Shown: positions 1-45,517 of the stretch, piece after piece | How positions within the stretch are numbered: position 1 is the stretch's first letter | Layout of the letters: every line of letters begins with the position of its first letter | IMG/VR virus record: IMGVR_UViG_3300032282_001088 | Location: 1 to 45,517 of that record | Source: a virus | Length of the DNA: 45,517 nucleotides | Direction: 5' to 3' (one strand) | Translations under genes and position numbers: made by a program | Notes under the pieces: model-generated | What the model saw: only the letters and a program-made list of their open reading frames with translations | The model's database searches: none | Told to the model about the DNA's origin: nothing

Positions 1-1796
1 AGTACTTCATTGATGTCAGGAAGTTTAATCTGTTTAAGAATGCGCTTCTCGACTGCAAGGCGGTTATACAGATCAGGGTTAGCCTGAGCACGCGCAGCGA
101 GGGCTTGAACTTGAGCATAGCGTTGACTCTCCGCAAAGATGTGTGGATCAGAGACTGGTACAACGTCAGAGTTCTTCTCAAAGTCCTTTGAGGTGACGCC
201 AAGCTCTTGGCTCATCTCGTCTGGGTTGTCGTCCAAGTACCAGCGGTTCAGACGCCCGATGATCTTGAGCACCCGTGCTTGGCTTGTGTGCAGCCGTGCG
301 TGGATGGCTGAGAACACAGCAGCGCCCTGCTCGATCAGCGCTTGCGTTGTGCCAACAGGCGCGTTGGATGTCACGTCAGCGATCTTCTCTTCAGCAGTAG
401 TGACGACACCCTTAGCTGCGTCAGTCAACCAACCAAGCAGTTGAAACAGCACGGCAGACGGTTGATTGAACGGCATCGGCATCGCGATCTTGCGCACGTC
501 ATCGACGCCCGGTGCGCCTTCGATCTCCGTGACCTGAGTGGGTTCTACGACGATAGACTGCCCAGACACCTTGCCGCCTTTGAGCTTGAGCATCGTGGGG
601 GCGTTGTTTATATGAGCAGAATCAAGCAGAGCCCGCAGAGCGCCAGTAAGAGCAGCAGACAGACCGCCAATAAGATGGGGCAAACCCACTGCATACGCAC
701 CTCGCCAAGGAATGAATTTATATTCAACGATCCAGTCGAGCTTAGCCATCAGCTCGTCGCCGTCTTCCCAGTTGCGGTACAGACCCACGACCTCAGAGGA
801 CAGCTCGTCAATCATCAGGATGTAAGGCGCACGGTCACCGCCAGACTTCTTGTCGTCTTCGAGCTCCATCCATGTGTAGATGTGGAACACACGACGCACG
901 CCGTCGATGTTGTCGGCTTCTGACTTGCGACCTTCAATCTTGTTGTTTGCCTTCTCGGGCTTGCTCTCTTCAGGTTCTTGGCTTGCGCGATAGACATCTA
1001 AGTCGATGTAAAGCCCCGATGACACGCGAGCCTCAAAGTCGTCTTGCGTGATGTCGTTGACCTCAGTTACACGGCTGGCGGTGTAGAAGTTAGCCGCGGC
1101 AAAGGGCAGGTACACGTTATCGATCGGCAAGAACTCAGCGCACGGGCGACGCTTACTCTCGTCGTACCAGATCTTCATGTACTGCGATCCACCGAGCGGT
1201 AACTGAGTGAGCAATTGCTCTTCCTCGTCGCGGTACTCTTCAATCTTCTCAGTCAACTGGTAGTTCATGTAGTCGCGCTTGCGCTCAGCGATCATCGTCT
1301 TCTGCTCAGTCACCTCGCCTAGAATCTTTGAGCGAACGGGACCGTCTGGCGGAAAGAGCTCCTTGATCGCTCGAGCAGCGAAATCGACGCAGCCCTCAGC
1401 CATGATGGGGTGCACGACCTTGCTCGCCCCCATGAACGAGGCACCGCCGGGCGCGTCTTGCCCGAGCCCCGTTCTGCGCAACCCCTCTTCGTACTGCTTG
1501 TCACGCCCCTCACGCGCTGACTTGTCTTTCTCAACGAGCTCTAAGTACTTGAGCGCAATGCGCGACAGATCGTATGAGTCGATGCTATCAGCAAGATTCT
1601 CGTAGAAGTCAGGCGACTCATCAGGGCCGAGCAAGTCGTCCTCTAGACGCACGATTGCTGAGCCGTCGTCCTGCTCCTCAACGTCAGCCTGATCGAACAG
1701 ATCGACCTCAGCGGTGTCAGCGAACTCGCTGTCGCCGTGCGCCTCGGGGGCGATGAAGCGACCGTAGTCTTGCGGGATGGGATATTCAGTTGCCAT
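1..1796 (-). CDS. Portal protein, 3' end cut by window edge
   Basis: About 598 codons are visible from ATG at 1796, and the frame stays open to the left edge, so the C-terminus is missing. The portal forms the dodecameric ring at the head vertex through which DNA is packaged and ejected. The call rests on resemblance to large podovirus-type portals: an acidic N-terminus, then a segment containing GASFMGASKVVHPIMAEG, a region with FPPDGPVRSKI, and a helical C-terminal part, together with its position after the large terminase. The start overlaps the stop of the upstream gene as TAATG, so translation is coupled. No frameshift was seen in the visible part. The long antisense ORFs across it are shadows. 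Confidence 0.85.
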   Translation of the reverse strand, partial: MATEYPIPQDYGRFIAPEAHGDSEFADTAEVDLFDQADVEEQDDGSAIVRLEDDLLGPDESPDFYENLADSIDSYDLSRIALKYLELVEKDKSAREGRDKQYEEGLRRTGLGQDAPGGASFMGASKVVHPIMAEGCVDFAARAIKELFPPDGPVRSKILGEVTEQKTMIAERKRDYMNYQLTEKIEEYRDEEEQLLTQLPLGGSQYMKIWYDESKRRPCAEFLPIDNVYLPFAAANFYTASRVTEVNDITQDDFEARVSSGLYIDLDVYRASQEPEESKPEKANNKIEGRKSEADNIDGVRRVFHIYTWMELEDDKKSGGDRAPYILMIDELSSEVVGLYRNWEDGDELMAKLDWIVEYKFIPWRGAYAVGLPHLIGGLSAALTGALRALLDSAHINNAPTMLKLKGGKVSGQSIVVEPTQVTEIEGAPGVDDVRKIAMPMPFNQPSAVLFQLLGWLTDAAKGVVTTAEEKIADVTSNAPVGTTQALIEQGAAVFSAIHARLHTSQARVLKIIGRLNRWYLDDNPDEMSQELGVTSKDFEKNSDVVPVSDPHIFAESQRYAQVQALAARAQANPDLYNRLAVEKRILKQIKLPDINEV

Positions 1797-4700
1797 TATT
1801 TAGACCTTGTTAATTCGTGACGCATTGCGTCAACATTTGGGGCGAAGGAGATTTTGCCGCCACGCTTCATATTATTTGGGTCTTCTTGTGATTCAGTTAC
1901 CTCATTTAAGCCTGCGCCAACAGCAACTGGTGCTGCTGAAAACATATGCTTACCGTATTTTTTAAACAATGACATCCGCTCTTCAGGCGTTGAGTATTCG
2001 TGTATGTCAGTAATGCCGTTCTTTTTTAAGATCGCCCTAACTTTATCGGTAGAATTTTTGGGTATGATCGCCCCCGCAAATTCGCTCAAACCAACTGCTC
2101 GTTGTGGTTTGGCTTCAAAGTATCCAGTAGGCAAACTTTTTAATTTATTAACAAATGAAACAATTTCTTTTTTTAACTCAGAAGATACATTGCCTTCGCC
2201 ATAAATCCTGTCCAATACGTTTGGGTTTTTAGTTTCAGCAACCTCTGCCAATGCATCACGCGAATCGTAGCCACTTATTTCCCTAAGTTTTTTATTTAAG
2301 CCCTCAAACTTTTCATCGGTTTCTTTTTTGCTTGTTTCAAAATCTTCTGCGCTAACAATTCTTGATCGTTCTGACTTTACCTCTTTGAAGTTTTTAAACT
2401 TTGGTGTTGCAACGGCACGCAAATAAGCGGGTGACCCAAAAAAACTTTGGCGATTATTGATCCCTTTCATCTCTTTAACAAAGTTTTCAAGGTTGGCATC
2501 AACATAGCGGCGATTACCCATATTGGTGTAACCCTTGAATATGCGTTCCTTTATATCAACCCCGTTGTCGGGCAATGATGCCTGAAAGTTATCCAACCAA
2601 GATTCATATTCATTTTTGTTTTCATTGATGATTTCATTAACAGCACGACTGAAATCATACTTGTGAGCAAAATCATTCTTGTTGGGCAAAACGCCTTTTT
2701 CTTCCAAGAACTTTGATCTTATTAAAGGGTTGTACTCCAACTCTTTGATGTCATCGACAACCCTGTAAAACTCATGGTTACCATCAGGAATGTTCTTAAT
2801 AGTATTTGACAGTAAATTTTTTAAATTGTTTTCGCTTTTAGTGTCTATTGAAAAAGTAATGTTGGGTTTAGTTGCTGTGTAAGCATCTGATCGAAACACA
2901 GGGTTCTTGGCTGATGGCTCAGCTAATGAACTTGGGGCGATCAAAGTAATTTCACCGAAATTCGTCATAGGTTCAGATGCTTTGGATATTGCCAAAGATG
3001 GCACAGGCATCCCGCCCAATGAATCTGCCCCAAATAATTTTGCAGGCGATAAATTGTGGTGAGCAATTAGCTCTTCACCTTCAGGTATTTTAGATTTTGC
3101 TTTGGTTTCTTTCGGCACAACCACAGGTGTCTGCTCGTTTGCGGGGGCGAGTACTCGTGGCGTGACATCCTTAATCGACAACCCCGGCTGCGGTATCGCG
3201 CCTGACTCGTAACCTGAGCGCACAGCCTGATCAATCTTGCTAAGCGCAGGCGCTGCACGCTCTGCACCCAACTTCAGCCCCGCACGCATCTGCGCCACGG
3301 TTGGTGGGTTGTGCACCCATAAGTTTGGGTGCATGCCAAAGCCCATCTCTGAACCAGTCAGGCGTGATCCGATTGTTCCCGCTTCCTGAAGCAACTCAGC
3401 ACCTTCAGCGGTGCGCGGTGACATCAACTCTTCGTAGTCATGACCAGTCGGTGCGTCTTTCAAGTTGCCGTGCTGCAAGTAGTGCAGACCGACTCTACCT
3501 GCGTGAACAGGCACTGCAGCCATACCCAAGCCCATCGTGCGTGCAGCATCCGCCACAGCCAAAGTCCCAGTTGGATCAACACCTGCCAAGGCATCGCCCT
3601 GTTGAGCGCGATAGCGCCTGTTCTCAGCTTCTTGCCGACCTTTCATCGTTAGCTCATAGCGCTGCTGGTCGATCGTTGGTATCGTGCTTGGTACGTCAGA
3701 GCCATACGTCGGCTTCTCAAGCACGCTAAACGGGTTGTACTCGCGGTTGATGTCAATGCCTGACTCAATGTTGACGTGCCCGCCCTCAGCCATCCCAATA
3801 CCATGACGATACTCAGCAAAGGGCACCTGCGCTGTCTGAAAAATGGGGTGACCATCGATGATGCCGCCTTCGGCTTTGTGCACAGCGCCGCCCATGCGCT
3901 TGACCATCTCAATGTGCTCAGGGTTCGTGATGCGAAACCAGTCGTCACGACCGCCAGTGCCAGTCGCGGGTCGCTGATAGCCTGCGAAGTCAGCCGCCTT
4001 GGTGATGCCCGGCATCAACGTGTCGTAGTGCTGACGGTTCTGCGTCATCAGATCATATATCTGCTCGCCTGTCATGTTCGTGTCAGCGGGCAGCTTGCTC
4101 CAGAACTTGCGCATTGCGTTGACTTGCTCAGCGCTGTAGGGCGTCTCGTCCATGCGCAGCAGCTTATCCTCGGGCACGTCAAACTTGTTGAGCACGGGCG
4201 GCCCTTGTATGTTCAGCGCGTCCATCTTGTCGCCTGCTCGCTTGAGCGCATACGCAGGATCGCTTGTCACATCAAACGATCGAGCAACGTCTGGGGTAAT
4301 CTTCGTTGTGCTGCCGTGCATGACGCGCAGTTTGCCGCCGCCTGCCATGCGCTGCGGTTGCTTCTGATTCATCAACGCCAAGTTAGCCAGATCCATGTCA
4401 AGCATTCTGAACGCCTGCGGGTCTTTGATCGTGTTCTTGATCGCCTCTTCGGGGGCGGAGTCTACTATGCCGCCTTGGGCGTAGAAATCAGGCAGCTCGA
4501 TAGCTCGGCGCTGATATGTCTTATCGTCTCTTGGGTCTAAATAATAGGCTTCTGGCTTAACGCGGTTACCAGTGAGTTGCATCTCTTTGTAGAGCGCCTC
4601 GAGGTACTCTTCTTTCGACCGACGGGGGAACGGCTCACGCAGCTCTGAACGAGGCACTAACTGAACCAGACCTGCCTGCTCGCCTGCTGCATCCATTACT

Positions 4701-5149
4701 CGGCTGCGGTGCCTGCCCTCATGCCCAGAGATGTAAGGCAAGCCAGTCGAGCCTTGCTTCATCTTATTGATGTTTAGGTACGGCACATCAGAAAACCCAC
4801 CGTTATTGTGAAAGCCAGTGATATCGGCAATCTTTTGCAAACTTCTGTCTGACAAGTTAGCGTCAAGCGGAGCCGCATAGCGCTCGAAATCCGATGGCTT
4901 CATGGTCATTAGCGCCTGCGCGTTGTCGCCCGTGAACGCTCTCATCAGCGCTTGCTCCTGATACAGCTTCTCGAGGTTCGGGATCTCATCTGCAGCTCGC
5001 TCGACTCGTTGGGCGCCATATTGACCCTCGCTCTGCCGCACGCGGTTAGCAAGATCGGTGATACTACTGCGAGTCATCACGTCGGGCGCCGCAATACTCA
5101 GCGGCGGCACTTTAACCTTCGGTGTCTTAGGTAGTGGCATAGTGATCAC
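1796..5149 (-). CDS. Large polyvalent-type multidomain phage protein
   Basis: An 1117-residue protein between terminase and portal. Visible modules are GHEGRHRSR at residues 142-150, as in other phage polyvalent proteins; an ADP-ribosyltransferase-fold-like segment from VMHGSTTKI (276) through FDVTSDPAYALKRA (292) to WFRITNPEHI (about 404-413); glycine motifs AGGG and AEGG near 270 and 427; and a C-terminal module starting HHNLS (697) with GGMPVPSLAI and FGEITL. The last module (below about position 3100) is plainly richer in A+T than the rest, suggesting a separate origin. Start is GTG at 5149, overlapping the terminase stop as GTGA, or ATG at 5140; neither has a clear ribosome binding site. 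It may be packaged and injected, by analogy with polyvalent proteins; the activity is not known. Confidence 0.7.
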   Translation of the reverse strand: MITMPLPKTPKVKVPPLSIAAPDVMTRSSITDLANRVRQSEGQYGAQRVERAADEIPNLEKLYQEQALMRAFTGDNAQALMTMKPSDFERYAAPLDANLSDRSLQKIADITGFHNNGGFSDVPYLNINKMKQGSTGLPYISGHEGRHRSRVMDAAGEQAGLVQLVPRSELREPFPRRSKEEYLEALYKEMQLTGNRVKPEAYYLDPRDDKTYQRRAIELPDFYAQGGIVDSAPEEAIKNTIKDPQAFRMLDMDLANLALMNQKQPQRMAGGGKLRVMHGSTTKITPDVARSFDVTSDPAYALKRAGDKMDALNIQGPPVLNKFDVPEDKLLRMDETPYSAEQVNAMRKFWSKLPADTNMTGEQIYDLMTQNRQHYDTLMPGITKAADFAGYQRPATGTGGRDDWFRITNPEHIEMVKRMGGAVHKAEGGIIDGHPIFQTAQVPFAEYRHGIGMAEGGHVNIESGIDINREYNPFSVLEKPTYGSDVPSTIPTIDQQRYELTMKGRQEAENRRYRAQQGDALAGVDPTGTLAVADAARTMGLGMAAVPVHAGRVGLHYLQHGNLKDAPTGHDYEELMSPRTAEGAELLQEAGTIGSRLTGSEMGFGMHPNLWVHNPPTVAQMRAGLKLGAERAAPALSKIDQAVRSGYESGAIPQPGLSIKDVTPRVLAPANEQTPVVVPKETKAKSKIPEGEELIAHHNLSPAKLFGADSLGGMPVPSLAISKASEPMTNFGEITLIAPSSLAEPSAKNPVFRSDAYTATKPNITFSIDTKSENNLKNLLSNTIKNIPDGNHEFYRVVDDIKELEYNPLIRSKFLEEKGVLPNKNDFAHKYDFSRAVNEIINENKNEYESWLDNFQASLPDNGVDIKERIFKGYTNMGNRRYVDANLENFVKEMKGINNRQSFFGSPAYLRAVATPKFKNFKEVKSERSRIVSAEDFETSKKETDEKFEGLNKKLREISGYDSRDALAEVAETKNPNVLDRIYGEGNVSSELKKEIVSFVNKLKSLPTGYFEAKPQRAVGLSEFAGAIIPKNSTDKVRAILKKNGITDIHEYSTPEERMSLFKKYGKHMFSAAPVAVGAGLNEVTESQEDPNNMKRGGKISFAPNVDAMRHELTRSK

Positions 5150-6540
5150 ATCGCATAAGGATTCTCACGTCGGATCCGTCGATCCTCTTCGTATTCGTCA
5201 TCATAATGCACAACTGGATCGATTTCAATGAAGTTCATGTCGCGCAGCACCCTGAGCGCTTGCGACAGCGCGTCGCAGTAGTCGTCGTGCTTTGCGTTGG
5301 GAAAGCTGCAGACTTGCGTGACAAAGGGATTGAGCCACTTGCGCGGTTTGCCTGGGCGGTCTTCGCTCTCGGGCAGGTAGACGCGCCCGCGCATGATGAG
5401 GGGGGCGACTAAGTTCAGGCGCATTGTCTTATCAGCGCGACCGGGATTGTACGATCGCACGGGCAGATTCGCTCGCTGCAAGTCTTGAATCAAGCTGATG
5501 CCAGCGCTCTTGTCCTCGATCAGGATCAGGTCGACTTTCTTGCCGTTGCCAAACTCGTTCTCGTCGCCGTAAATACTGGTCGCCTCTTCGATTACCTTGG
5601 GGCGCAGGTCAGGGTAGAGCATGTGCTCTGACCAAGCGTCGATGACCATTGCGCTCATGGGTTTGTCAGGCGACGGTCGAAACACGCCCATCACCACGCA
5701 CGCTGTCGGATCGTTCGATGTCTTGTCGGACGTGGCGCAGTCATACGACTGCACGACGTACTCGAACTGAGGCAGTGGTCGATCTGCGGGCCAGAGCTTG
5801 AACCAGCTCTCGCTAACGATACCGCCCTCGAGATCGCTGATCAGCTCAGCATAGAGTTCTTGACGACCGAGCTGCGTGCCCCCGAACTGGCTGAGCTCGT
5901 CGATGAATGACTTGGCAAGGTTGTCTTTGTTCTCAAACGTCGAGCCAGTCGTCATAATCGTTGACGACTCATCGTCCTCAGCCTCCTCGACCAACTGGCG
6001 TACCAAATCGATAGGCTTAGGCGTCGTGGTCACGATCACCTTGGGGTTCTGGCCAAGCCGAAGACCAAACTTCATCATCGACCACGCCTCGTCTGGGTAC
6101 TGCCACGCCGCGAGCTCATCGCACCAGACAATGTGGTGTTGCGGGCCGCGTAGGCGCGACGGCTCTTCGGCCGAGAACCCACGGATGATAGAGCCGTTCT
6201 TGAGAGTTACCTCAAGCAATGATTTGTTGTAGCCGGATATGATTGAAGGCGGGAGCACCGCCATTAAGCCAGACTCGCCCTCGAGGCAAACGGCGCGCAC
6301 GTCGTTGGTGGTGGGGGCAATGATCCCGCATCGAGTGTTTGCGTTTGTCGCCGCGTACCAGCCGAGCGCTTGAGCGCCAGTCTTTGTCTTACCCCAGCCG
6401 CGACCCGCTAGGATCAACCAAGTGGTGTACCAGTCGCCATCAGGCATGATCTGCTTCTTGCGTGCGGTGTCAAACCAAGCCTCACGCCAGTCGAGCATAA
6501 CGAGCTCATCGATGCTGAGCTCAACCAGATCTTCAGCCAT
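5146..6540 (-). CDS. terL: Terminase large subunit (packaging ATPase-nuclease)
   Basis: A 464-residue packaging motor that translocates DNA into the prohead through the portal and cuts the concatemer. It has a Walker A-like GRGWGKT at residues 46-52, Walker B IVWCDE at about 137-142, the coupling motif TTTPKP near 173, and a C-terminal RNase H-like nuclease with acidic residues in SYDCATSD, IEDKSAG and KHDDYCDA. Its length is normal for the family. The start overlaps the end of the small-subunit gene by 8 bases, and the stop overlaps the next start by 4. Confidence 0.95.
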   Translation of the reverse strand: MAEDLVELSIDELVMLDWREAWFDTARKKQIMPDGDWYTTWLILAGRGWGKTKTGAQALGWYAATNANTRCGIIAPTTNDVRAVCLEGESGLMAVLPPSIISGYNKSLLEVTLKNGSIIRGFSAEEPSRLRGPQHHIVWCDELAAWQYPDEAWSMMKFGLRLGQNPKVIVTTTPKPIDLVRQLVEEAEDDESSTIMTTGSTFENKDNLAKSFIDELSQFGGTQLGRQELYAELISDLEGGIVSESWFKLWPADRPLPQFEYVVQSYDCATSDKTSNDPTACVVMGVFRPSPDKPMSAMVIDAWSEHMLYPDLRPKVIEEATSIYGDENEFGNGKKVDLILIEDKSAGISLIQDLQRANLPVRSYNPGRADKTMRLNLVAPLIMRGRVYLPESEDRPGKPRKWLNPFVTQVCSFPNAKHDDYCDALSQALRVLRDMNFIEIDPVVHYDDEYEEDRRIRRENPYAM

Positions 6541-25675: not shown

Positions 25676-28600
25676 TTATTTCCTTCCTACTTGTTGTAGC
25701 GCTTCTTTCATGTACTCAAGAGGCGATGCCTTGGGGGGTATTTTATCAGCGGGTGCTGATCTTGTATGGTTTCGTAACGACTCACGAAACGCATCTAAAA
25801 GTTTTGCACCTGCATCGCTTGAGCCGTTACCAAGCGTTGAAACGGTCGAGGCGTCAAAGACGTACTCGCCGTCAGCTAACATCGCAGGGATGTCATCTGA
25901 CTGCCCATCGCCTCGACCCCTGACGTAGTGCCCAGTCGCACCTGTGATGAACTCAGGGATGTGCTCACCCTCGCCACCGTGCGCCTGCCCGCCCTCAGCC
26001 ATCGTGCCTGTGGGCAAGTTAGCGATGCCAGTACCCGCCATAGCTAGGGGGTTGGTGCCCGAGCCCTGATAGAGCCAGTCTGAGCCTGCTTTTTGACCTG
26101 TTGGGATCACGGGGATGCCGGGCGTTGGTTTGCCTAGCAATTGACTGCCCGCAAACGTCGTAGGATTGCCGCCAGACGTGTCTTGACCGTAGGTAAAGTA
26201 GTTAGGTGTCGCTCTCTTTTGAAGCACGCCATAGAGGCTTGGATCAACGCCAGAGATGCCTTGCTGTAACTGAGCGAGCTGTAGGGGGCTGCCGCCATCT
26301 TTTGCGTGTACAGGGGCTAGCTGCTGATATACGTTGTAATTTTCAAAGGGGTTGTATTCGTTCACATTTACACCTTGCAAGAATGTACTTTGTAAGTTAC
26401 CGGGCAGTGCGCCGACCGTTGTGCCTTGCGTGCCTGAGCCGTACATGTACGATGGCGTCATTGTAGTAGCAGGCGCTGCGACTTTGGGTGGCGTGATCGC
26501 TGCCTGCACCAACGGCGGTGGGTTGACAATCGGTGGTTTGACGATCGGCGGGTTGATGTCAATCGGCGGGTTGACGATTGGTGGATTGACGCTCGGTGGC
26601 GTCGGAATTGGGGGATTAACAATCGGCGGTGGATTGATGCTTGGGGGCGGCGGATTGATAATCGGCGGCTTAATAATTGGTGGCTTAATAGCTAATGGCG
26701 GGATAACCTCATCCCAAAACTTCTTGTCGGTTTTGGTGCCTGTATTAGTTTTGGTTCCTGTATCAATTGTTGGGGAAACCTTTTCACCAAGCTCAGTCTT
26801 TGTGCCGTTGTTGTTCAATAACCCGAGCTTAATCGCCTCAGCAGGCGTGATACCGAGTCTTGACGCATTGCTGAGCATCTCTAGCTTAGCGGGCAGTTGC
26901 TCGTCAGCGCTAAGCGGCTCAACTGCTTTATCGACTTGTTTTAAGATGACCTCAGGCGGCGCAGACTTATTGTCAAACGTATTTTTAATACCCTCAATCA
27001 CATTGTTAGAATATGCGCCTTCTGCGAATGCACCGTTCCAAAATTTTGCAACAGATGGATCAACTTGGTTTTCTGCAAAGGTTTTGATTGTGGTGTCAAT
27101 AAGCGACTTCTGAGCTTGCAATTGCGGCTCAGTGCGACTGCCCAAGTTTTGGTCAACAACTTTTGCTTGCTCAGTAATCGTAGCCAATGAGCTTGAATCA
27201 AGGTTTGGACCAAGATCAATAGGCTTAATTGCAGGCTCTGCAAACGTCGTAGGCAAAGCACTGCGAGACTCAGGCGCAAGCTGCGTTGCGACAGACGGTT
27301 CTGTTCTTGATAGCGCAGGCACGTCATAGGTCGGGATTCGATCAGCCGCTGCAAACGCATCATTAAAAACGCTTGCAACGTCTCTAGTGGGCGCAACCAC
27401 TTCTGCTGGACTGTATCCCAAAGCAGGCGTTGGCGCTGACAATCTTTCAGGGCTCACATAAGACGGCGCTTCGTCAATTATTTCGCCCAGATTGATGTTC
27501 CTTGTGGGGCTCTCGCCACGCAACAGGCTTGTGTCAGGCGCTCGCGTTAGATCCGCAACAGTTGCGCCAAGGTTGTATGCGCCAGAAGTGTTTGGATCAA
27601 TAATCCCTGTAGCCGCAGCTTCATATCCACGACCAACGTCCTTGACTGCCGTGCCTGCTTCCCTAAGGGTAGATAACGCAGTGCCCGGTCGCATCAAAAT
27701 CGCATCAGTCATTAACCGAATATCACCTGCTGGCAAACCAGTCTTTTGCGATAAATAATCAGCACCTTTGTCTATATTCTCGCTGATAAAACGCAACGCC
27801 TGACCACTTGCCTCGCCCGTGTAACCGGGAGTGTTGGTCACACCAAATGCTTTGCCAACTGGATTGCTGATTGCTTCAGCCACCCTGTTTGATATTTCAC
27901 GCATTAGTTCTGGGTTGGCTTGGTAATTTTTGCCAATAAGTGATGCTGTCAATTCCGCTATTTGATCCGCTGTTCGCAAGCCAAGATAAGACGCCATCTG
28001 AGTGACAGTAGGTAAAATAGCGCCAACAGTGTTATCTAACGCAGAAGCGACGCCCTGTCCAAATGTAGCTAACTTACTTTGTGATGGCGCTAAATCACCA
28101 AACTCGCCTAGAAAGCCGCCAGCGGTGGTATCACTCACCGTTTCAGGCTCGTTCCAGCTAACGCTTACTGGTCCGCTAGAGCTAAATCTATTTGGGGCGA
28201 GGGTGACAGGATTCACATCACTAGTAGTCGCACTAGCAAGGGTGCTTAAAGGCGCGTAAGCAGTCGGATTTTGTTGAAAATTATTGAGCGCCTGCGCCAT
28301 GAGCTCAGCATCGCTTTGACCTGTCGCTTGAGAGATCAAAGGTGGCGTTGTAGGCAAGTTGCGATTCATCGCGTCCTGAGCATCTTGCTGCAAGATGCTG
28401 TTGACTACGTCAGGTTGATTTTCCGCATCTAACGGCGCACTAACTACAGGCTGATTTGAGCCACTAACAGGCAATGCCTGAGCATTTGTCGCGCCTATCT
28501 CGTACTTGATTGAGTCAACAGTTGATGAGATCGTATCTGTCAAACTAGCTTTCAAGTCCTTGACGACTTGGGTATCGCCGATCATGCCAGCAACGCTTGT

Positions 28601-30400
28601 TAAAGCAGAATTGACCGCGCCCATGATTGCAGCCGTGCCAATATCGCCGCCTCTGACTGCTGAAATTACAGAGCTAGAGATAGCCGAGTTAATGGCTTTC
28701 TGAATGCTCGGATCTGTAATGCCAGCACCGTTTAATACGTCAGACGTACCTGTTGGTATGACGTTTGAAAGCGTAGCGGTCAGCGCACCTGTCAGCGCTG
28801 CCTCATAAGGATTCTGCCCTCTTGCCGCTGCGATTGCTGTTGATATAGCAGTTTGAGTGCCAATCTGAGCAAGTGTGCCGCCGCCCATTAAATCAGCTCC
28901 TGCAACGCCCGCACCACCTGTTAAGGCGCCTACTGCACCTGCCTTCAAAACATCGCCTATGTTGCCACCACTCGCAGCAGTAACAGCAGCGTTAATAGCA
29001 GCAGTCTTAGCGGCTTGCGCCGCAACAGCGCTCCAGTTCAATCCTTCTGTAGCAAGTGTGCCGCCCACTGTTGAGGCAGCTCCTGCTTGAGAGAGCGTGC
29101 CGCCCATGAGCTCAGCAGCTTCAATCGCGGTTAAGCCTGCGCCCGCAGCGGGAGCCATGTACGCCATTAACTGAGGCGCAAGCATAGAGCCGTAAATCAT
29201 TGCTGCGTTCTTGCCCAAACTGCGCCAGTCTTTACCTACGTCGCGTGTTGACTCTTTAGCAAGGCGCATCTCCGCGCCGGGCAAATTCGCCTCCGCAGCC
29301 GTGTGCCATGTGTACTCATCCGTGCCAGTCAAGCCGCTATTCGTGCCGAACCAAGCCGCTAACTTACCCGTTGTTGGGTCGTAGTAATGCGTAGGCAAAC
29401 CTTCGTAATGACCACCGCGGGTTAAACCACGCTCGTCAAACCCACGCACACCCTGCTCAAACTTAGTGTTCACATCGGCGTTCGGATCAAGGAACGGCAT
29501 GTTCTTTTTTATGTACTCTTCAGACGTTGTGAAGCCTTTAATCACATCATCAAGCGTGACTGATCCGTCTTTTAGCTGTTTATCATATGCTGCGACTTCA
29601 GTCTTATCAGGCGTGCGATCAAGCAAGCTCTTGTACAGATTGGTGATCTCTGTCTTGTAGCCTGTAATGTTCTTGTCAAACTTTTTAGTGTCAATCGTCT
29701 CGCCCGTGTCAGCGTTTACATAGCTGACGTTACCTGCCTCATCTCGAACAGTTTGAATGTTCATAGGCGCAGCAAGCTCACGACGCTCACCTGTGTTGGC
29801 GTTTTGCCAATACGCTTGAGATGTGCCACTGTCTGTGGCTTGAGGAGGTTGCCATTCCCAGCCTGCATTTGGATTAACATAATTTGGGTTTTGAATGAAC
29901 ATTGGCATACCGGTTGAATCATGACCAGTAATCCATTCATCCGTTGTATTGGTATTGCCACCACCCGTGTCTGGAGACAGGCCGTAAGACTGACCCTCAG
30001 CACTTGTCCTGAGCGCCTCGCGCATTTGCTCGCCGGTCAGTCCTTGATTGAGCAAGTTAGTAAACGACTCCATCCCGCTCGCGTCAGCCTGCCGACCAAA
30101 CTCTTGCTGGTAGATGTCGTTTATTGTTTGCTGCCACTGATTTGCAGGAGCAGGCGTAAGAGGTGCGCCCGAGTAGACGGGGTCATTAAAAGAGGCTGCA
30201 ACGTCGTTAGCAGGCGCAGGTGCAGACTCTGCCGCAGACGCTAATGGCGCAGCAACGGCATTAGGATCAGAAACCTCATCGCCAGTAGCAATCCAAGTAC
30301 CGTCATCTGTGTAGCCCCACAGCCGAAGACCGCGACCGCCAACAGGTGTACCACGCCCTTGAAAGGCTCTAAGCGGTAGCAGGTCTAAACGGTATTTCAT
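25676..30400 (-). CDS. Giant internal virion protein (1574 aa)
   Basis: Probably an ejection or internal virion protein. Near residues 90-150 and 240-300 it has DUF4214-like segments (QQTINDIYQQEFGRQAD, ITNLYKSLLDRTPDK). A long Ala/Gly-rich hydrophobic block with many glycine-zipper-like motifs (about 400-620) may interact with membrane. A proline-rich PPI repeat lies at about 1235-1300. The C-terminal part has AEGG...SDDIPAMLADGEYVFDA and NGSSDAGAKLLDAFRE, a motif conserved in phage internal/tail proteins. Start overlaps the previous gene as ATGA. Ribosomal frameshifts were not seen. Confidence 0.7.
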   Translation of the reverse strand: MKYRLDLLPLRAFQGRGTPVGGRGLRLWGYTDDGTWIATGDEVSDPNAVAAPLASAAESAPAPANDVAASFNDPVYSGAPLTPAPANQWQQTINDIYQQEFGRQADASGMESFTNLLNQGLTGEQMREALRTSAEGQSYGLSPDTGGGNTNTTDEWITGHDSTGMPMFIQNPNYVNPNAGWEWQPPQATDSGTSQAYWQNANTGERRELAAPMNIQTVRDEAGNVSYVNADTGETIDTKKFDKNITGYKTEITNLYKSLLDRTPDKTEVAAYDKQLKDGSVTLDDVIKGFTTSEEYIKKNMPFLDPNADVNTKFEQGVRGFDERGLTRGGHYEGLPTHYYDPTTGKLAAWFGTNSGLTGTDEYTWHTAAEANLPGAEMRLAKESTRDVGKDWRSLGKNAAMIYGSMLAPQLMAYMAPAAGAGLTAIEAAELMGGTLSQAGAASTVGGTLATEGLNWSAVAAQAAKTAAINAAVTAASGGNIGDVLKAGAVGALTGGAGVAGADLMGGGTLAQIGTQTAISTAIAAARGQNPYEAALTGALTATLSNVIPTGTSDVLNGAGITDPSIQKAINSAISSSVISAVRGGDIGTAAIMGAVNSALTSVAGMIGDTQVVKDLKASLTDTISSTVDSIKYEIGATNAQALPVSGSNQPVVSAPLDAENQPDVVNSILQQDAQDAMNRNLPTTPPLISQATGQSDAELMAQALNNFQQNPTAYAPLSTLASATTSDVNPVTLAPNRFSSSGPVSVSWNEPETVSDTTAGGFLGEFGDLAPSQSKLATFGQGVASALDNTVGAILPTVTQMASYLGLRTADQIAELTASLIGKNYQANPELMREISNRVAEAISNPVGKAFGVTNTPGYTGEASGQALRFISENIDKGADYLSQKTGLPAGDIRLMTDAILMRPGTALSTLREAGTAVKDVGRGYEAAATGIIDPNTSGAYNLGATVADLTRAPDTSLLRGESPTRNINLGEIIDEAPSYVSPERLSAPTPALGYSPAEVVAPTRDVASVFNDAFAAADRIPTYDVPALSRTEPSVATQLAPESRSALPTTFAEPAIKPIDLGPNLDSSSLATITEQAKVVDQNLGSRTEPQLQAQKSLIDTTIKTFAENQVDPSVAKFWNGAFAEGAYSNNVIEGIKNTFDNKSAPPEVILKQVDKAVEPLSADEQLPAKLEMLSNASRLGITPAEAIKLGLLNNNGTKTELGEKVSPTIDTGTKTNTGTKTDKKFWDEVIPPLAIKPPIIKPPIINPPPPSINPPPIVNPPIPTPPSVNPPIVNPPIDINPPIVKPPIVNPPPLVQAAITPPKVAAPATTMTPSYMYGSGTQGTTVGALPGNLQSTFLQGVNVNEYNPFENYNVYQQLAPVHAKDGGSPLQLAQLQQGISGVDPSLYGVLQKRATPNYFTYGQDTSGGNPTTFAGSQLLGKPTPGIPVIPTGQKAGSDWLYQGSGTNPLAMAGTGIANLPTGTMAEGGQAHGGEGEHIPEFITGATGHYVRGRGDGQSDDIPAMLADGEYVFDASTVSTLGNGSSDAGAKLLDAFRESLRNHTRSAPADKIPPKASPLEYMKEALQQVGRK
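26515..26694 (-). repeat. Proline-rich repeat inside the giant gene
   Basis: On the minus strand the code repeats PPI(I/V)(N/K)PP-type units for about 60 residues, such as KPPIIKPPIINPPP and INPPIVKPPIVNPP. It is a coding repeat giving a stiff polyproline linker between the middle and C-terminal domains. Because the DNA repeats are GGCGGGTTGACGAT-like, slippage and length variation are likely. Confidence 0.7.
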
Positions 30401-45190: not shown

Positions 45191-45517
45191 CTACCACCCC
45201 GCGCATTTCCAGCGTTTTAGTGAGGCTTTTGCGCGTGGCGCATCGCCGCTTGCATGCTTGACTACGCCGCTCATTCTTGCGCAGAATGAATCCTTACGAC
45301 TGCCGCCTTGTGGCTGCGGCGCTTTTAAGTGGCTACCTGTCTCACGATTATACTTGGCTCTGCCCTTTGCAGTCAATCCTGCGCCCTGACTTGTTGGTAA
45401 CTTCTCACCACGACCAACAGCGAGCGATACGCCGCCGCCTTTAGCCTTTTTCACAGTCTTTGCAGATTCAACAAAAGCCTGTGCACTAGGAGCACCCTTG
45501 GCGCCCGCCTTACGCAT
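45191..45517 (-). CDS. DUF6321-like basic protein, first late gene in window
   Basis: A 108-residue very basic protein containing GLTAKGRAKYNRETGSHLK and the C-terminal KDSFCARMSGVVKH and ALKRWKC, the pattern of DUF6321. Members occur in phages near head genes; the function is not known. Its ATG lies at the very right edge, so its ribosome binding site is outside the window. Stop abuts the connector gene. Confidence 0.75.
   Translation of the reverse strand: MRKAGAKGAPSAQAFVESAKTVKKAKGGGVSLAVGRGEKLPTSQGAGLTAKGRAKYNRETGSHLKAPQPQGGSRKDSFCARMSGVVKHASGDAPRAKASLKRWKCAGW

What the first reader, a model, noticed from the sequence alone, without database searches (positions are those of the whole stretch)
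1796..5149. Polyvalent-type protein between terminase and portal, with AT-rich grafted C-terminal module
The 1117-residue protein has an HEGRHRSR segment, an ART-fold-like segment and a C-terminal HNLS...GGMPVPSLAI...FGEITL module, in a place where most podoviruses have no gene. The C-terminal third (below about 3100) changes sharply to AT-rich DNA, at about the same point where the HNLS module begins (residue about 697), which points to a module gained by recombination. Such proteins may be injected with DNA and act on host targets. The activity is inferred, not shown.
Basis: partly seen in the sequence, partly recalled or inferred. Interest (0 to 1): 0.72.

Follow-up and report, generated by a model that had tools for sequence, protein, structure and literature searches.

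The report
Swappable phage cargo protein with tag
This phage gene, wedged between the DNA-packaging motor gene and the portal gene, encodes one of a series of swappable cargo proteins; its AT-rich last third is a foreign toxin-like cassette, and across 49 different relatives every cargo ends in the same short peptide, which may be the address label that loads it into the virus particle.

Summary
The 1117-aa ORF (1796-5149, -) lies between TerL and portal, and its GC falls from 0.56 to 0.39 at 3112 (residue 680). The HEGRHR part is a ParB/Srx-like domain. The 'ART-like' segment gets no support. The HNLS module is Pfam PBECR5 (75 bits, cut-off 25). It is a clean cassette swap: residues 4-673 and 1083-1117 occur in relatives' cargo proteins, 674-1082 in none of them. 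In the window's clade this place is a cargo slot holding 1-2 giant, largely unrelated ORFs; four relatives keep TerL and portal at 94-96% identity while only 3-23% of this protein aligns. What does not change is a short C-terminal tail, GG.[VI]...[LIV]DAMRHEL....: 49 of 49 distinct last ORFs have it (portal identity 73% or more), separate upstream ORFs often have their own version, and it is absent from other genes. It is constrained at the protein level. I read it as a candidate capsid-targeting (cargo-loading) signal, like those of T4 internal proteins and P1 DarB. The nearest named relatives of the module sit in the gp16 (ejected protein) position of T7-like phages Ab9 and Carin1. Packaging, injection and enzyme activity are inferred, not shown.

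The parts
1796..5149 (-). Cargo (polyvalent-type) protein, 1117 aa
   Evidence: ORF between TerL and portal; slot filled by unrelated giant ORFs in relatives
5146..6540 (-). Terminase large subunit (upstream flank)
   Evidence: PF03237 E 3e-23, PF17289 E 2e-11
3..1796 (-). Portal-like protein, cut at the window edge (downstream flank)
   Evidence: Homologues annotated head-to-tail connecting or portal protein; used as anchor for 80 relatives
4466..5071 (-). ParB/Srx-like N-terminal domain, residues 27-228
   Evidence: 15-sequence alignment A2; AF2 model, Foldseek hits mostly ParB/Srx fold
4706..4723 (-). HEGRHR motif, residues 143-148
   Evidence: Invariant in all 15 sequences
4328..4474 (-). 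GG-bounded spacer, residues 226-274 (GGIVDS...MLDMDLANLALMNQKQPQRMAGGG)
   Evidence: Recurs after other upstream domains in relatives; GG motif enriched in slot proteins
3890..4327 (-).
   Evidence: Homologous to the C-terminal part of the FIRST slot ORF of L034 and L093; ART identity not supported
3131..3742 (-). Pre-cargo region, residues 470-673, ending in hinge PGLSIKDVTPRVLAPANEQ
   Evidence: 77% identical in L048 (470-653) and L034 (631-673)
1782..3112 (.). AT-rich segment, GC 0.39 against 0.56 on both sides
   Evidence: Segmentation
1904..3130 (-). Grafted cassette, residues 674-1082, absent from the clade relatives' slot proteins
2789..3097 (-). PBECR5 (PF18814) match, residues 685-787; conserved His 698
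   Evidence: E 9e-21, 75.2 bits, cut-off 25
2138..2842 (-). Helical insert splitting the PBECR5 core, residues 770-1004
   Evidence: AF2 secondary structure
2093..2131 (-). PTGYFEAKPQRAV, second conserved block of the module, residues 1007-1019
   Evidence: Nearly invariant across 14 sequences
1799..1870 (-). C-terminal tail MKRGGKISFAPNVDAMRHELTRSK, residues 1094-1117
   Evidence: Tag at this end in 49/49 distinct last slot ORFs
1811..1831 (-). Tag core DAMRHEL, residues 1107-1113
   Evidence: Slot-exclusive; protein-level constraint

Best explanation
The gene is the occupant of a cargo slot. It encodes a polyvalent-type protein made with the head genes, loaded into the capsid and delivered to the next host with the DNA. 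It has four parts: a ParB/Srx-like N-terminal domain; a linker and pre-cargo region ending in the hinge LAPANEQ; an exchangeable effector cassette, here PBECR5, which most likely acts on a host nucleic acid or protein early in infection; and a constant tail GG-KISFAPNV-DAMRHEL-TRSK, which I propose is the loading tag that recruits whatever cargo precedes it, through the scaffold, the inside of the capsid or the portal. Recombination between the constant hinge or linkers and the constant tail replaced the clade's usual terminal module by an AT-rich PBECR5 cassette. Shown here: slot position, cassette boundaries, domain matches, universality and protein-level constraint of the tail. Inferred: packaging, injection, enzyme activity, function of the tag.
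For: Composition break and homology break coincide. Both junctions are in frame and the flanks are conserved; L036, L039, L059 and L048 have TerL 94-96% and portal about 95% identical to the window's, yet only 3-23% of the window protein aligns with their slot proteins. PF18814 75 bits. 31 positions are invariant between the window module and 13 distant homologues, so nothing in it looks decayed. Tag: 61 matches in 86 slot proteins against 0.3 in shuffles; 3 matches in 468 other ORFs of the same loci, all in two misassigned slot ORFs; C-terminal in 49/49 distinct last slot ORFs, with 8 of 18 separate upstream ORFs carrying their own C-terminal version and 17 last ORFs an N-terminal one; it follows 8 clusters of mutually unrelated modules. 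Codons vary while residues do not: Arg by four codons, Leu by five, median dN 0.18, dS 1.0. A scan of all IMG/VR contigs for DAMRHEL finds 24 such tails and 9 unrelated internal peptides. Module relatives lie in the gp16 position of Ab9 and Carin1, near annotated internal virion proteins. Precedents: T4 internal proteins are a highly diverse set sharing only a capsid targeting sequence (PMC3012670); 30 N-terminal residues of P1 DarB send a reporter into the capsid (PMC9024508).
Against: No virion proteome was found for this clade; no experiment shows packaging. The tag is predicted as a helix but at very low confidence. Its last codons overlap the portal's likely ribosome-binding region, so part of the conservation could serve the portal gene, though not the N-terminal copies or those of upstream ORFs. 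Tails in phages with portals 67-70% identical differ (a second type in 7, none or degenerate in 9). The catalytic layout described for PBECR (His in an N-terminal helix, Ser/Thr near the C-terminus) is not seen clearly: the model puts the His at the end of strand 1, and no Ser/Thr is invariant in the C-terminal half. The PBECR5 cassette in this setting is known from one contig only.
Confidence: 0.52

Rival explanations
1. The tail is not a targeting signal. It is the stump left beside the portal gene when cassettes are exchanged, kept because it carries the portal's translational coupling and ribosome-binding site; the proteins act inside the producing cell.
For: The tail abuts the portal start and in the window overlaps it as TAATG, with AAGG within the last codons.
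Against: The motif also ends separate upstream ORFs (GG...PS.EEMRIEMMER.YG), begins other ORFs (LDQMKLELVKK) and sits inside proteins after GGEV. Synonymous codons vary freely in the core.
Confidence: 0.2
2. The slot proteins are structural internal proteins (core or scaffold-like), and the domains are relics without enzymatic work in the host.
For: Position in the head operon; large size; GG-rich linkers; slot filled in close relatives with both flanks visible.
Against: Content turns over almost completely between phages with nearly identical portals. Distant relatives do without the gene. Domains are of effector families: PBECR5, ART-PolyVal, PcfJ, LPD23.
Confidence: 0.13
3. The grafted module is an effector of another chemistry than an RNase, for example an ADP-ribosyltransferase-like transferase with His on strand 1, Ser before strand 2 and Glu near a late strand.
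For: AF2 places the conserved His on strand 1 and Ser just before strand 2; DarT entries appear among the weak Foldseek hits.
Against: Those hits have E values of 5-6. hhalign of the module against 11 DarT and 26 ART-PolyVal sequences gives probabilities under 1%. Pfam places it in PBECR5 far above cut-off.
Confidence: 0.22

Closest known systems
Polyvalent proteins of phages and conjugative elements (Iyer et al. 2017, PMC5512222)
   Same: Large multidomain protein among head genes; PBECR, ART, LPD and PcfJ-type domains in the clade; rapid domain shuffling as described for Helicobacter jhp1044
   Different: Here the exchange happens in one fixed TerL-portal slot between constant ends, with a recurrent short terminal tag; I found neither described in the papers searched
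Phage T4 internal proteins with a capsid targeting sequence (PMC3012670)
   Same: Highly diverse cargo sharing only a short terminal peptide
   Different: T4 cargo is small (general knowledge); here the peptide is usually C-terminal, on proteins of 268-2424 aa, with an unrelated sequence
Phage P1 DarB (PMC9024508)
   Same: About 250-kDa virion-packaged protein, gene next to the portal in P1's ORF numbering; a terminal signal within 30 residues is sufficient for capsid entry
Encapsulin cargo targeting peptides (PMC10960027)
   Same: Short, usually C-terminal peptide behind a glycine-rich linker loads different enzymes into an HK97-fold shell
   Different: Bacterial nanocompartment, not a virion; different peptide; binding partner here unknown
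Ab9 CDS16 and Carin1 gp32 giant proteins (T7-like gene order)
   Same: Carry the same PBECR5 module (33-64% identity over aligned stretches)
   Different: Module lies mid-protein in the gp16 position, not in a TerL-portal slot

Membership tests
Polyvalent proteins (Iyer 2017) | Two or more domains of disparate predicted activity in one polypeptide | tested here: met
   ParB/Srx-like domain (fold evidence moderate) plus PBECR5
Polyvalent proteins (Iyer 2017) | Gene among virion or late genes of a phage | tested here: met
   Between TerL and portal
Polyvalent proteins (Iyer 2017) | Packaged and injected with DNA | not testable with these tools
   No virion proteome; only indirect support
PBECR5 (PF18814) | Sequence profile match above gathering score | tested here: met
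   75.2 bits against 25; covers profile 7-111 of 239
PBECR RNases | Catalytic His in an N-terminal helix and Ser/Thr in a C-terminal strand | tested here: inconclusive
   His invariant but modelled at the end of strand 1; no invariant Ser/Thr after residue 1004; model moderate (mean pLDDT 69)
PBECR RNases | Metal-independent RNA cleavage | not testable with these tools
   Needs a biochemical assay
ParB/Srx fold | Fold similarity to sulfiredoxin or ParB N-domain | tested here: inconclusive
   Most of the top Foldseek hits are ParB/Srx (Srx prob 0.92, TMt 0.44; ParB, Noc, SbnI, PadC, Osa), but best E is 0.05
ParB/Srx fold | Arg-rich G-x-R-type nucleotide motif before the helix (pattern from general knowledge) | tested here: met
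   HEGRHR invariant in 15 of 15, modelled at the start of helix 143-154
ART-PolyVal (PF18760) | Profile match of residues 270-420 | tested here: not met
   No Pfam hit at E<=1; hhalign probability 1.8% over 13 columns
Capsid targeting sequence (T4/P1 type) | Short terminal peptide shared by otherwise unrelated internal proteins of one phage group | tested here: inconclusive
   Shared by 49/49 last ORFs after 8 unrelated module clusters; that these are internal virion proteins is not shown
Capsid targeting sequence (T4/P1 type) | Necessary and sufficient for entry into the capsid | not testable with these tools
   Needs a reporter-fusion experiment

The most novel reading that the evidence does not exclude
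A whole clade of uncultivated podovirus-like phages has a standard, portable terminal loading tag (GG linker + [LIV]DxMR[HYL][EA]L) that delivers exchangeable giant effector cargo into the virion, with a dedicated cassette slot between terminase and portal: a modular injected-effector system with a readable address code.
Probability: 0.45. Interest if true: 0.75.

Novelty: new variant of a known kind. Interest (0 to 1): 0.6.

Why it matters
Polyvalent proteins have been predicted to be injected since 2017, but the signal that puts them into the virion is known only for cases such as P1 DarB, where no consensus among the packaged proteins was found. A tag of about 24 residues that is the one constant element across unrelated cargo proteins makes the question testable with a single fusion. 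It would also let phage cargo proteins be recognised in metagenomes by their tag rather than their domains. The graft itself is a clear example of effector cassette exchange between two conserved genes.

Tried and rejected
ART identity of residues 270-420: no Pfam hit, no hhalign support, poor model. PBECR5 as a disguised DarT/ART, suggested by the His on strand 1 and by weak DarT hits: 11 DarT and 26 ART-PolyVal sequences aligned and compared, no support. ART-PolyVal in 199 genomes: nothing rang anywhere, uninformative. PDB sequence search with both profiles: only chance hits. NCBIfam and PADLOC: no match. The C-tail of the 1574-aa structural protein (PLEYMKEALQ) as another copy of the tag: its acidic position is not conserved in relatives, set aside. 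Chimeric assembly: unlikely, since both junctions are in frame and fall at hinge and tail, but no second contig carries this cassette in this setting. Papers on the tag or on a TerL-portal cargo slot: none found in the searches made.

Full report
1. Observation. GC is 0.56, then 0.39, then 0.56, with breaks at 3112 and 1781 (log-likelihood gain 66); GC3 falls from about 0.64 to 0.36 at codon 680. The window is a virus record of 45,517 bases. The portal runs off its left edge.

2. What surrounds it. The portal was used as an anchor to fetch 80 relatives. In loci where both flanks are visible, the TerL-portal interval holds one or two large ORFs, mostly of 268-2424 aa. Their contents vary far faster than their neighbours. 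L036, L039, L059 and L048 share TerL at 94-96% and portal at about 95% with the window, yet only 3-23% of the window protein aligns with theirs; L032 (portal 96%, slot ORF cut at the contig edge) shares nothing detectable. Among more distant named phages the slot is empty in Caulobacter RW, Roseobacter CRP-902 and Planktothrix Pag-Yong1, and filled in MW202545, DSL-LC04 (PcfJ-like) and HTVC027P. So it is an accessory cargo slot.

3. The graft. Against all clade slot proteins, residues 4-673 and 1083-1117 of the window protein are shared and 674-1082 are not found in any. The left edge lies just after the hinge PGLSIKDVTPRVLAPANEQ, after which several relatives carry another terminal module (...PLHYMDITPAMRKEF...). 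The right edge lies before the tail MKRGGKISFAPNVDAMRHELTRSK. Composition and homology borders agree within 7 codons on the left. Some relatives also have an AT-rich block in the terminal part of their cargo (L052, L081).

4. What the cassette is. Pfam PF18814 (PBECR5) matches residues 685-787 at 75 bits, cut-off 25. phrog_22978 matches 843-1059. Thirteen distant viral homologues (22-29% identity) align with the module: HN, GGxPxPSxA, DA(W/Y)T and PTGYFEAKPQRAV are kept almost throughout, so it looks intact. AlphaFold2 gives a core at pLDDT about 85 with a roughly 235-residue helical insert. Foldseek finds no significant solved relative. Relatives in cellular assemblies are mostly in Clostridia and Bacteroidales, many from gut or rumen, at 23-39% identity, so the donor is unknown. 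The nearest named phage relatives are Acinetobacter phage Ab9 (33-34% in two stretches) and Cobetia phage Carin1. There the module lies in 2839- and 2854-aa proteins in the gp16 position of a T7-like operon, after tail or nozzle, small internal virion proteins and lysozyme, and in Carin1 just before the depolymerase. T7 gp16 is an ejected internal protein (general knowledge).

5. The N-terminal domain. Fifteen sequences share HEGRHR. The model of residues 27-225 (pLDDT about 80) has ParB/Srx topology, and most of the top Foldseek hits are of that fold: sulfiredoxin (prob 0.92), ParB-CDP, Noc, SbnI, PadC, Osa, although no E-value is below 0.04. In L034, L093 and L055 this domain sits in the second slot ORF, and in L034 and L093 the window's 275-420 segment ends the first ORF: modules move between ORFs.

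6. The tail. The motif [LIVM][DE]xM[RK]x[EA][LM] occurs 61 times in 86 distinct slot proteins, 0.3 expected from shuffles. Among 468 other ORFs of the same loci there are 3 matches, all in two slot ORFs that had been misassigned. In loci with portal at least 73% identical, 49 of 49 distinct last ORFs end with a slightly looser form, 17 also begin with it, and 8 of 18 separate upstream ORFs end with their own version (PSxEEM[RL]IEMMER). By chance 0.09 proteins would carry a terminal copy; 57 of 67 do. It follows 8 clusters of mutually unrelated modules. Arg is written with four codons, Leu with five; median dN 0.18, dS 1.0. A degenerate-DNA scan of all IMG/VR contigs for DAMRHEL gives 33 sites: 24 are GG...DAMRHEL tails 11 or 15 residues before a stop, 9 are unrelated internal peptides. 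More distant phages have a second tail type, GGSINLNQEYKLENMRRRYG. A GG-centred linker is also enriched in slot proteins, 222 against 16.5 expected from shuffles.

7. Mechanism. [quoted passage not shown] In P1, the first 30 residues of DarB are enough to carry a reporter into the capsid (PMC9024508). Encapsulins load cargo by short, mostly C-terminal peptides behind glycine-rich linkers (PMC10960027). The slot proteins have the same layout: diverse cargo, GG linker, constant short helix-like end. I therefore propose a cargo-loading tag. This is inference; the partner could be scaffold, capsid or portal. The rival reading, a stump kept for portal translation, does not explain the N-terminal copies and those of upstream ORFs.

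8. Limits. The cassette is seen in this setting in one contig. PBECR5's nuclease activity is a prediction for its family (PMC5512222), and the catalytic layout described there is not clearly seen in the model. No virion data were found.

Noticed in passing
L013 4912-8300: A different phage (portal upstream of the cargo genes) shows another repeated short tag after GG in consecutive ORFs (GGSIVGKALMLTSKK, GGFIVDHALHLTRKRRHHYADGG); possibly the same design with a different peptide.
   Followed up: no
window 25676-30400: A 1574-aa structural-type protein ends in PPKASPLEYMKEALQQVGRK, superficially like the tag; in relatives the acidic position varies (E, M, Q, A).
   Followed up: partly
L104-L111, L098: Slot proteins of phages with portals about 67% identical mostly end in a second constant tail, GGSINLNQEYKLENMRRRYG.
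   Followed up: partly
L114 11260-12801: Roseobacter phage CRP-902 has an empty slot, but a gene annotated 'nuclease' downstream carries a stretch similar to the start of the PBECR5 module (38% over about 69 residues).
   Followed up: no
L063-L091, first slot ORF: Small upstream ORFs begin MxYDEELARMRAQMLAKEEEE, a tag-like N-terminus, and end in Lys/Pro-rich tails.
   Followed up: no
window 3-1796 and 45191-45517: The portal is cut at the left edge and does not continue at the right edge; the head genes found downstream of portal in relatives (GroES, capsid) appear to be missing, so the record looks like a fragment of a larger genome.
   Followed up: partly
L204 293-314 (-): Another contig with the tag (GGQITFANDLDAMRHELTRNK) after a preceding sequence unlike those listed, beside a portal start.
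   Followed up: no
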